From Caldicellulosiruptor morganii (GTDB lineage Bacteria > Bacillota > Thermoanaerobacteria > Caldicellulosiruptorales > Caldicellulosiruptoraceae), in the NCBI RefSeq assembly GCF_026810225.1, contig NZ_CP113865.1:597001-661000 (forward strand): 64,000 nucleotides of DNA. The letters run 5' to 3'. Below the pieces are notes generated by a model. It saw only the letters and a list, made by a program, of their open reading frames with translations. It was not told the origin of the DNA and did not search any database. The stretch's first letter is position 1, and every line of letters starts with the position of its first letter. Of this stretch, positions 12,155 through 16,780 are shown one piece after another. The position numbers and the translations under genes were made by a program.

Positions 12155-12304
12155 ATGGGTTTATTTAGTTTGGGTGTTCCAAAGCAGATAAAAGAGTTGG
12201 GGCGCGACATCTGTGAGCCACTTGATGTTGAGTACATTGAAGGTCATCCGGACATAAAGTATCAGGGAAGAATGAAGCTGCATGTCTGTCAGAACGGTTT
12301 TTAT
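12155..12304 (+). pseudogene. 5' part of an unknown gene split by a TnpB element
   Basis: Fifty codons from MGLFSLGVPKQIKELG to QNGFY, with good promoter and ribosome site. At base 12304, directly after TTTTTAT, the frame passes into the mobile element and runs only to a chance stop at 12349. Joining base 12304 to 13663 restores one open frame (QNGFY-LIDPSKK) of 108 residues ending at 13839. I do not recognise the family. The protein is soluble, mixed alpha/beta in composition, with two cysteines near the insertion point. Confidence 0.85.
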
Positions 12305-12389
12305 CTGAAATATAGCAAGAAGACTCCATCTTCTTCAAGATGGAGATGAATTGCTAAAAATGTGATAAAATATTTCTGGGTGATGACAA

Positions 12390-13607
12390 GTGTACAAAAC
12401 ACAGAAAAATCATATAAGATGTAATAAGAAAACATACAAACTTTTGCGAAAGCTCTGTCACTTTTCAAAAAACCTGTACAACTTTGCTCTGTATCATATA
12501 AGACAGCACTATTTTCAAACTCATGAATATTTGCGATATGAAAGTGTATATCACATTGCAAAAGGCAACCAAAACTACATGCTCTTGCCATCACAGGTTG
12601 CACAGCAGACACTTATTTCGGTGGATGAATCTTTTAAATCTTTTTTGAACCTTTTGAAAGCCAAAAAAGAAGGAAAGGTAAAAGAGAAGGTTTCTATGCC
12701 CAGATACCTACCAAAGGAAGGGATGTACCAGATAGTTTTTCCAAAAGACCAGTTCAAGATAGAAGATAAGAAAGTGAGACTGAGCCTTGGCAGAAACTTT
12801 TCAAAGGAGTTTGGGGTAAGATACTTATATTTTGATTTGCCAAAAAACATTGCAGGCAAAAAGATTAAGGAAGTCAGGATAATTCCAAGATACCATGGGA
12901 AATGGTTTGAGATTGAGTATGTGTATGAGGAAAAAGAGCAGGATTATGAGCTTGACAAAAGCAGGATTTTGGCAATAGACTTGGGATTAAACAACTTTGC
13001 AGCGCTTACGGATACCATTGGGACTGCCTTTTTGATAGAGGGCAGGTTTTTAAAATCAGTCAACCGATGGTATAACAAAGAAAAAGCAAGACTGCAAAGT
13101 GTATACTCCAAACAGGGAATCAAATATGGTTCAAAACTTGCTCAAATTTCTCTAAAAAGACAGCATATAGTTGAGAACTTTTTAAATCAGGCTGTAAACG
13201 TTGTAGTTAAGCACTGTCTGGAAAATAAAATAGGAATAGTTGTTGTGGGTAGGATGAAAGAGATAAAGCAGGGTATAGAGCTGGGGAAGGTGAACAATCA
13301 GAACTTTGTGGGGATACCGTACAAGAAGTTTAAGAGAAAATTAGAAGCAAAGTGCAGGTTATATGGGATAGAGTATGTGGAGGTAGAAGAAAGCTACACC
13401 TCACAGAGGTGCAGCAGATGTGGGATAATTGACAAAAGTAACAGAAAGCACAGGGGCTTGTATGTATGCAAGGAATGTGGGAATGTATTGAATGCGGATA
13501 TAAATGGGGCGATAAACATACTTTTGAAGGTAGCTGGTGAATCTGCAAAAGAGCAGATAACCAGTAGTGGGTGTGTGAACCACCCTGTGAGAATAAGGGT
13601 AGCATAA
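12390..13607 (+). CDS. tnpB: TnpB, RNA-guided nuclease of an IS200/IS605-type element
   Basis: A 405-residue OrfB/TnpB protein with a GTG start. RuvC-I is ILAIDLGLNNFAAL with its aspartate (about residues 192-205). The RuvC-II strand reads IGIVVVGRMKEIKQG, where the usual catalytic Glu (VVE) is Gly. The zinc ribbon is C-SRC and C-KEC (about 350-370), then RuvC-III NADINGAINIL. Just before the zinc ribbon it has EESYTSQ where canonical TnpBs have a non-acidic residue, a pattern reported for rearranged-catalytic-site TnpBs. TnpB with an omega RNA cuts empty donor sites and so maintains the element. No tnpA is adjacent, so mobility would need one in trans. Confidence 0.93.
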   Translation: MYKTQKNHIRCNKKTYKLLRKLCHFSKNLYNFALYHIRQHYFQTHEYLRYESVYHIAKGNQNYMLLPSQVAQQTLISVDESFKSFLNLLKAKKEGKVKEKVSMPRYLPKEGMYQIVFPKDQFKIEDKKVRLSLGRNFSKEFGVRYLYFDLPKNIAGKKIKEVRIIPRYHGKWFEIEYVYEEKEQDYELDKSRILAIDLGLNNFAALTDTIGTAFLIEGRFLKSVNRWYNKEKARLQSVYSKQGIKYGSKLAQISLKRQHIVENFLNQAVNVVVKHCLENKIGIVVVGRMKEIKQGIELGKVNNQNFVGIPYKKFKRKLEAKCRLYGIEYVEVEESYTSQRCSRCGIIDKSNRKHRGLYVCKECGNVLNADINGAINILLKVAGESAKEQITSSGCVNHPVRIRVA

Positions 13608-13662
13608 AATGCTGCCAAACTTCTCATGAAGCCTTAACCTCTTTAGGTTGATGGTAGTTCAC
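13540..13662 (+). ncRNA. Candidate omega RNA at the right end of the first TnpB element
   Basis: The 3' end of tnpB and the 55 bases after it carry stacked hairpins. GGTAGCAT (13598-13605) pairs with ATGCTGCC (13609-13616), and the right-end stem lies at 13634-13651. By analogy with other TnpB elements, the RNA would end at about 13662 and use the host sequence beyond as guide. No expression evidence. Confidence 0.4.
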
Positions 13663-13839
13663 CTGATTGACCCTTCAAAAAAGCACTTTGGAGTTGTTAA
13701 GTGGACAGATTTCAAAGATGCATACCCCAGCAAGACAGGTGACAGAAGAACAGTGATTGCAACAAATAATTTTAAGATCTACTTGCTTGGTATTGAAGAA
13801 AGAGTTTGCGAGGTTTTGACAAAGAGAATGGCAAGCTAA
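13663..13839 (+). pseudogene. 3' part of the gene split by the TnpB element
   Basis: Fifty-eight codons, LIDPSKKHFGVVKW to LTKRMAS, continuing in frame from the 5' part when the element is removed. A start further upstream (ATG 13648 or 13651) lies inside the element's right-end hairpin, so any product from it would be a chance fusion. A terminator follows at 13883. Confidence 0.85.
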
Positions 13840-16161: not shown

Positions 16162-16184
16162 TAAACTAGGGGAGGGTGATGAAA

Positions 16185-16475
16185 ATGAGCGATATAAAAA
16201 CTATTCAAGAAGATATCAGACACGAAGTTGGCATTGACTTAATATGCGGCCTCTTGGGTAAACTTACAAATATACTTATTAACATTAAAAACTCAGACAT
16301 CGAAGATAAAGAGCAGAAAATCGAAAAACTAAGAAAAATAAAGGCTGCCCTTGCAAAAGAAAGAGATGAAGCATACAGAGGAAATAAGGACACAATTGAA
16401 AGAGCTTACACCATATACGTCACACTTTTAGATTTAATTGCCGTAAACGAATCAAGTTTTATAGAGATCTTGTAA
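16185..16475 (+). CDS. Antitoxin-like small protein, copy 1 of a tandem pair
   Basis: A 96-residue acidic, helical protein (MSDIKTIQEDIRHEVGID at the start), first of two tandem copies that differ at only 14 positions. It sits immediately upstream of a zeta-toxin gene, which is the position of the epsilon/PezA antitoxin. I do not recognise the family by sequence, so its antitoxin role is inference from position, size and promoter order. No helix-turn-helix is evident, so it may neutralise by binding rather than by repression. Start ATG 16185 is well spaced from the ribosome site at 16169-16175; ATG 16179 is also possible. Confidence 0.7.
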   Translation: MSDIKTIQEDIRHEVGIDLICGLLGKLTNILINIKNSDIEDKEQKIEKLRKIKAALAKERDEAYRGNKDTIERAYTIYVTLLDLIAVNESSFIEIL

Positions 16476-16489
16476 GAGGAGGGATGAAA

Positions 16490-16780
16490 ATGAGCGATAT
16501 AAAAACTATTCAAGAAGATATCAGACACGAAGTTGGCATTGACTTAATATGCGGCCTCCTGGGTAAACTTACAAATATACTTATTAACATTGAAGACTCA
16601 GACATCGAAGATAAAGAGCAGAAAATCGAAAAACTTAATAAACTTTTGGATACTCTCTACAAAGAAAGATCTGAAGCATACAGAGGAAATAAGGACACAA
16701 TTGAAAGAGCTTACACTGTATACGTCACACTTTTAGATTTAATTGCCCTAGACGAATCAAAGTTTGTAGAAATCTTGTAA
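16490..16780 (+). CDS. Antitoxin-like small protein, copy 2 of a tandem pair
   Basis: A 96-residue near-copy of the gene just upstream. The first 34 residues are identical. Most changes fall in one block (residues about 50-62: NKLLDTLYKERSE versus RKIKAALAKERDE), and the ends differ by conservative swaps. The two ribosome sites and the first 100 bp of each gene are almost identical at DNA level, showing a recent duplication. The zeta-toxin reading frame begins 13 bp after the stop. Having two slightly different copies could allow one to keep binding the toxin or a relative after the other drifts. Confidence 0.7.
   Translation: MSDIKTIQEDIRHEVGIDLICGLLGKLTNILINIEDSDIEDKEQKIEKLNKLLDTLYKERSEAYRGNKDTIERAYTVYVTLLDLIALDESKFVEIL

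What the first reader, a model, noticed from the sequence alone, without database searches (positions are those of the whole stretch)
12155..13839. A TnpB-only element cut a 108-residue gene exactly in frame, giving its ends and target motif
Sequence shows: removing 12305-13662 joins QNGFY to LIDPSKK in one frame with an intact promoter, ribosome site and terminator. The left junction is preceded by TTTTTAT; the right end finishes GTAGTTCAC. Inference: the insertion motif, and hence the likely TAM of this TnpB, is TTTAT or a longer T-run plus AT. The first guide would begin CTGATTGACCC. The disrupted gene family is unknown to me.
Basis: partly seen in the sequence, partly recalled or inferred. 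Interest (0 to 1): 0.7.

Follow-up and report, generated by a model that had tools for sequence, protein, structure and literature searches.

The report
TnpB-only jumping gene with mapped ends
A small mobile element that carries only an RNA-guided DNA cutter (TnpB) has landed inside a small conserved gene; uninterrupted copies of that gene in twelve related genomes, and 37 insertions of the same element family, fix its exact ends and show that it always sits just after TTTAT, but it is a new member of a well-known kind of element.

Summary
The finding holds. Window 12305-13662 (1358 bp) is a TnpB-only IS200/IS605-type element that interrupts a 108-codon gene without target duplication. Twelve related genomes carry the uninterrupted gene, five with the predicted junction TTTTTAT|CTGATTGACCC letter for letter. 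The element has nine ~1358-bp copies in this genome; across the genus 37 distinct insertions all follow TTTAT (0.36% of positions in the window). The right end is TTCAC (TTTAC in two own copies). The target, and so the likely TAM, is TTTAT; T is favoured but not required before it.

They mostly insert after TTTAA. A 4-nt DNA guide at the foot of the left hairpin covaries with the target (AAGA with TTTAT, AAGT with TTTAA, GAGA with TTCAT), as the IS608 guide-DNA rule predicts. The TnpB has the displaced RuvC-II glutamate, is under purifying selection, and its 3' end plus the right terminus form a conserved RNA fold abutting the guide. The broken gene is restricted to this bacterial family; its function remains unknown. 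Ordinary in kind, unusually well resolved.

The parts
12155..12304 (+). 5' part of the interrupted 108-codon gene (codons 1-50, ...QNGFY)
   Evidence: aligns to residues 1-50 of intact homologues in 12 relatives
12300..12304 (+). target / left cleavage site TTTAT (likely TAM)
   Evidence: TTTAT precedes all 37 distinct TnpB-only insertions; kept in about half of the empty alleles
12305..13662 (+). TnpB-only IS200/IS605-type element, 1358 bp
   Evidence: nine ~1358-bp copies in the genome, 92-94% identical; absent from the site in 12 relatives
12320..12345 (+). left terminus: guide AAGA (12320-12323) directly before the subterminal hairpin (CTCCATCTTCTTCAAGATGGAG, 12324-12345)
   Evidence: guide covaries with target across element types: 156 of 159 predicted pairs Watson-Crick, shuffled mean 135.6, maximum 145; stem-loop 12324-12345
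12390..13607 (+). tnpB, 405 aa, GTG start; predicted catalytic D197, E334 (displaced), D370; CxxC zinc ribbon
   Evidence: NCBIfam guided_TnpB 1.8e-66; Pfam OrfB_IS605 and Cas12f1-like_TNB; Ealt pattern matched
13528..13662 (+). predicted omega-RNA scaffold (overlaps the 3' end of tnpB); seven helices including a possible pseudoknot GTGAAC / GTTCAC
   Evidence: alignment A1 of 35 copies, 98.0% of cells paired, 8 pairs with changes on both sides against a shuffled mean of 1.6
13628..13662 (+). right terminus: guide GAAG (13628-13631), hairpin, cleavage site ...TAGTTCAC
   Evidence: matched at about 85-92% by the tnpA-carrying elements over the last 35-38 bp
13663..13682 (+). predicted guide of this copy, CTGATTGACCCTTCAAAAAA
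   Evidence: flanks the predicted RNA 3' end directly; five relatives carry TTTAT followed by its first 11 nt
13663..13839 (+). 3' part of the interrupted gene (codons 51-108 and stop, LIDPSKK...)

Best explanation
This is a non-autonomous TnpB-only element of the IS200/IS605 group. A Y1 transposase (TnpA) supplied in trans, most likely by the tnpA-carrying elements with the same termini elsewhere in the genome, moves it as a single strand and inserts it directly 3' of TTTAT. The target is read by a 4-nt DNA guide (AAGA) at the foot of the left hairpin. After insertion, the end of tnpB, the right terminus and the flanking host DNA are transcribed together; the processed omega-RNA carries the flank (CTGATTGACCC...) as guide. 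TnpB with this RNA cuts DNA where TTTAT precedes that sequence, that is, the empty site, so the element can be restored by repair from an intact copy. Shown by sequence: element ends, no duplication, empty alleles, 37 of 37 TTTAT, shared termini, guide/target covariation, conserved RNA fold, selection on tnpB. Inferred: TnpA action in trans, RNA processing, TnpB cleavage, and TAM = TTTAT.
For: Nine ~1358-bp copies. Empty alleles at this site in 12 genomes and at the sites of own copies 4 and 8 in 3 and 11 genomes; copies 3 and 6 also align to uninterrupted sites, less closely. TTTAT before all 37 distinct TnpB-only insertions against 0.36% of positions in the window. Three ~1749-bp elements with tnpA plus another tnpB share both termini; six PF01797 matches in the genome, four of them intact frames. 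The one genome of the genus without a PF01797 match (G011) has only truncated copies of this element. Guide/target pairs 156 of 159. RNA helices with two-sided changes. tnpB dN 0.035 / dS 0.23 among seven own copies and 0.14 / 1.12 between species. In ISDra2 the TnpA target equals the TnpB TAM and the RNA comes from the right end (PMC8612924).
Against: No cleavage, transposition or RNA data. The canonical RuvC-II glutamate position is glycine (VVVGRM); activity relies on the displaced E334, and in the published screen one ortholog of the RII-r5 clade was reported active (PMC10278001). Not all copies are intact: of nine own copies seven have a full tnpB frame. The pseudoknot rests mostly on invariant pairs. 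Guide/target covariation comes from only a few independent lineages.
Confidence: 0.85

Rival explanations
1. The element is a dead relic: TnpB is no longer a nuclease and the copy is simply a fixed old insertion.
For: The canonical RuvC-II Glu is replaced by Gly; two of nine own copies have broken frames.
Against: E334 fits the published displaced-glutamate pattern (PMC10711439); dN/dS is about 0.15; seven own copies have full frames; the RNA fold is kept by two-sided changes.
Confidence: 0.1
2. TnpB is active in RNA binding but repurposed as a guided DNA-binding regulator rather than a homing nuclease.
For: RuvC-inactive variants of this kind exist (own knowledge of the TldR proteins).
Against: All three acidic residues are present; copies are numerous and dispersed and each has a different flank as guide, as expected of a mobile element and not of one domesticated regulator.
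Confidence: 0.03
3. The element was moved by a transposase other than that of the 1749-bp tnpA elements, for example a lost one or another PF01797 protein of the genus.
For: The genome holds another, lower-scoring Y1 transposase (1499176-1499526); the target of the 1749-bp elements is TTTAA, not TTTAT.
Against: Only the 1749-bp elements were found here to share both termini, and the difference in target is explained by the difference in the left guide.
Confidence: 0.15
4. The interruption is an assembly artefact or a recombination product between copies.
For: Copy L034 shows that such recombination occurs in this genome.
Against: Here both flanks are contiguous in 12 relatives with nothing lost or gained, and the ends match those of the other copies.
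Confidence: 0.01

Closest known systems
ISDra2 (IS200/IS605; TnpB TAM TTGAT), PMC8612924
   Same: Pentanucleotide target kept on the left, no target duplication, TnpB with RNA from the 3' end of tnpB and the right end, target equals TAM
   Different: ISDra2 carries its own tnpA; target TTGAT; its TnpB has the canonical RuvC-II glutamate (own knowledge)
IS608 (Helicobacter pylori), PMC5934647
   Same: Guide DNA tetranucleotide 5' of each subterminal hairpin reads the cleavage site; here AAGA with TTAT and GAAG with TCAC fit the same pairing order
   Different: Target TTAC; own tnpA
IS1341-type (tnpB only) members of IS200/IS605 (own knowledge)
   Same: Only tnpB, IS605-like ends, transposase presumably in trans
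   Different: Not compared sequence by sequence here (ISfinder is not available)
Geobacillus stearothermophilus IS605-like elements whose TnpA acts on several TnpB and IscB elements (Meers et al. 2023, own knowledge; paper not held)
   Same: Thermophile with several nuclease types sharing ends and transposase
   Different: Different genus and sequences; that work has experiments, here there are none
TnpBs with displaced RuvC-II glutamate (Ealt), PMC10711439, PMC10278001
   Same: Pattern D-x-G ... ExxxxxxCxxC ... CxxC ... D is met
   Different: Has DLG rather than the DPG of the Fanzor-like group

Membership tests
IS200/IS605 group | Insertion 3' of a short fixed motif with no target duplication | tested here: met
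   Contiguous empty alleles in 12 relatives; TTTAT in 37 of 37 insertions
IS200/IS605 group | Subterminal hairpins with 5' guide sequences pairing with the cleavage sites | tested here: met
   Left guide: 156 of 159 pairs. The right guide GAAG fits TTCAC by eye in most copies; several copies deviate
IS200/IS605 group, autonomous members | Y1 transposase gene in the element | tested here: not met
   Element holds only tnpB; tnpA is on separate elements with the same ends. It is therefore filed as a non-autonomous, tnpB-only member
TnpB / OMEGA nucleases | Protein family match | tested here: met
   NCBIfam guided_TnpB 225 bits, cut-off 100
TnpB / OMEGA nucleases | Acidic RuvC triad | tested here: met
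   D197, E334, D370 by the Ealt pattern; the canonical Glu position is Gly
TnpB / OMEGA nucleases | Omega-RNA at the 3' end running into the flank | tested here: inconclusive
   Conserved fold up to the last base of the element; no Rfam match; transcription not tested
TnpB / OMEGA nucleases | RNA-guided cleavage next to the TAM | not testable with these tools
   Needs biochemistry

The most novel reading that the evidence does not exclude
In this genus one pool of TnpA serves at least two element types carrying different RNA-guided nucleases (this TnpB and the IS605-type TnpB, perhaps IscB elements too), and each type has its own insertion motif set by a DNA guide in its left end, so that the DNA guide and the TAM of the nuclease must change together.
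Probability: 0.45. Interest if true: 0.5.

Novelty: new member of a known kind. Interest (0 to 1): 0.38.

Why it matters
The co-resident TTTAT and TTTAA elements with different DNA guides are a natural experiment on how transposase target and nuclease TAM stay matched.

Tried and rejected
A T-run longer than TTTAT as part of the motif: position -6 is not fixed. Copy L034 as a natural re-targeting of the tnpA element to TTTAT: rejected, because its two flanks lie about 1.8 kb apart in relatives and its right flank follows TTTAA in G005, so it is a recombination product. Rfam: no match to the predicted RNA. Function of the broken gene: no Pfam or NCBIfam match, no PDB relative by profile (best E 0.27), no full-length relative elsewhere among 37 genomes of the class. 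Named genome collection with the 108-aa protein: nothing. Structure prediction of the 108-aa protein was not attempted: the joined protein is not encoded by the window letter for letter, and the intact homologues came from a tool not named in the stated rule. Several relevant papers are not held.

Full report
Observation. The 1358 bp at 12305-13662 lie inside a gene whose joined halves encode 108 residues. A search of 41 genomes with the joined protein found an uninterrupted gene in all 11 other genomes of the genus and in one genome of a sister genus, and only the two halves in the own genome. The gene is thus really broken in this strain, with nothing duplicated or lost.

Ends and motif. The own genome has nine copies of about 1358 bp, the other eight 92-94% identical to this one. 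Aligning their flanks gives TTTAT on the left and GGTAGTTCAC (GGTAGTTTAC in two) on the right in all nine. This also removes the 4-nt ambiguity caused by CTGA at both borders here. Including relatives, 37 distinct insertion sites of this element type with a readable left end were found and all follow TTTAT. TTTAT occupies 0.36% of positions in the window. The base before it is T in 22 of 35, so a longer T-run is not required. Uninterrupted sites in relatives confirm the rule closely for own copies 4 (3 genomes) and 8 (11 genomes, 8 with TTTAT and 3 with TTCAT); copies 3 and 6 also align to uninterrupted sites, less closely, with TTCAT in place of TTTAT for copy 6.

How it moves. The element has no transposase. 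The genome has three elements of about 1749 bp with an open tnpA frame and a different tnpB, whose first ~40 and last ~38 bp match this element's termini at about 85-93%, while the interiors give no DNA match. The simplest reading is that their TnpA works in trans. In line with this, the one genome of the genus with no PF01797 match, G011, has only truncated copies; this is one case, not a statistic.

Guide DNA. Elements with their own tnpA insert after TTTAA (single cases of GTTAA and TTGAA), not TTTAT. In IS608 a tetranucleotide just 5' of the hairpin pairs with the cleavage site (PMC5934647). Here the tetranucleotide before the left hairpin is AAGA in TTTAT elements, AAGT in TTTAA elements and GAGA in an IscB element at TTCAT. 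Scoring three pairs per element (-3, -4 and -1 of the target with guide positions 1, 2 and 4) gives 156 of 159 Watson-Crick pairs over 53 elements; shuffling guides among elements gives a mean of 135.6 and a maximum of 145 in 2000 trials. The pair positions were chosen after looking at the data with the IS608 rule in mind, two sites with atypical guides or spacing were missed by the pattern, and few lineages are independent, so this is good support and not proof. An apparent exception, a tnpA element at TTTAT (L034), turned out to be a recombination product: its flanks lie about 1.8 kb apart in relatives, and its right flank follows TTTAA in G005.

The nuclease. TnpB is 405 aa (NCBIfam guided_TnpB, 1.8e-66). 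The usual RuvC-II glutamate is a glycine (VVVGRM), but the protein fits the pattern for the displaced glutamate, with D197, E334 and D370 (PMC10711439). One ortholog with a RuvC-II rearrangement has been shown to cut DNA (PMC10278001). Seven of nine own copies keep the full frame, and dN/dS is about 0.15 within the genome and 0.12 between species (Nei-Gojobori, computed in a script).

The RNA. The last 135 nt of 35 copies fold into helices in which 98.0% of cells pair and 8 pairs show changes on both sides (shuffled mean 1.6, none of 500 shuffles as high; slid controls 1-3). The structure was drawn by eye from the window copy, which favours it on percentage paired, less so on two-sided changes. 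One further pairing, GTGAAC with the terminal GTTCAC, would tie the transposase cleavage site into the RNA; it is nearly invariant and so only suggested. The guide of this copy would start CTGATTGACCC.

The broken gene. It is present in all 13 genomes of the family searched (broken only here) and in no other genome of the class at full length; no family or fold is known for it. Its function remains unknown.

Verdict. Observation and interpretation are confirmed. The element is a new member of a known kind. The added value is the matched set of motif, DNA guide, nuclease and RNA in one genus.

Noticed in passing
L033, L034, L035 (own genome 371378-373125, 407402-409150, 2399852-2401600): Three ~1749-bp elements with tnpA and a canonical-glutamate tnpB share both termini with the window element but belong to a type that targets TTTAA; L033 sits at TTGAA and its flanks were not found contiguous in relatives.
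   Followed up: partly
L034 and L166-L169: Recombination between element ends appears to have removed about 1.8 kb, including most of one gene and the start of another.
   Followed up: partly
L038, L090, L143-L145: IscB-like genes (about 430-480 aa, named from their sequence, not scanned against a family library) end next to a hairpin like the left hairpin of the window element, in opposite orientation, at TTTAT or TTCAT.
   Followed up: partly
L172 (Thermoanaerobacter wiegelii Rt8.B1, NC_015958.1): A 78% identical TnpB in an element with the same termini, also after TTTAT, in another genus: likely horizontal transfer.
   Followed up: partly
window 13648-13839: The right end of the element supplies an in-frame TTG and ATG (MMVVHLIDPSKK...) to the 3' half of the broken gene; whether it is translated is unknown.
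   Followed up: no
window 16176-16780: Two adjacent, very similar ORFs of 98-99 aa, an apparent tandem duplication.
   Followed up: no
own genome copies L005 and L006: Right end TTTAC instead of TTCAC; these copies may be less able to leave.
   Followed up: no
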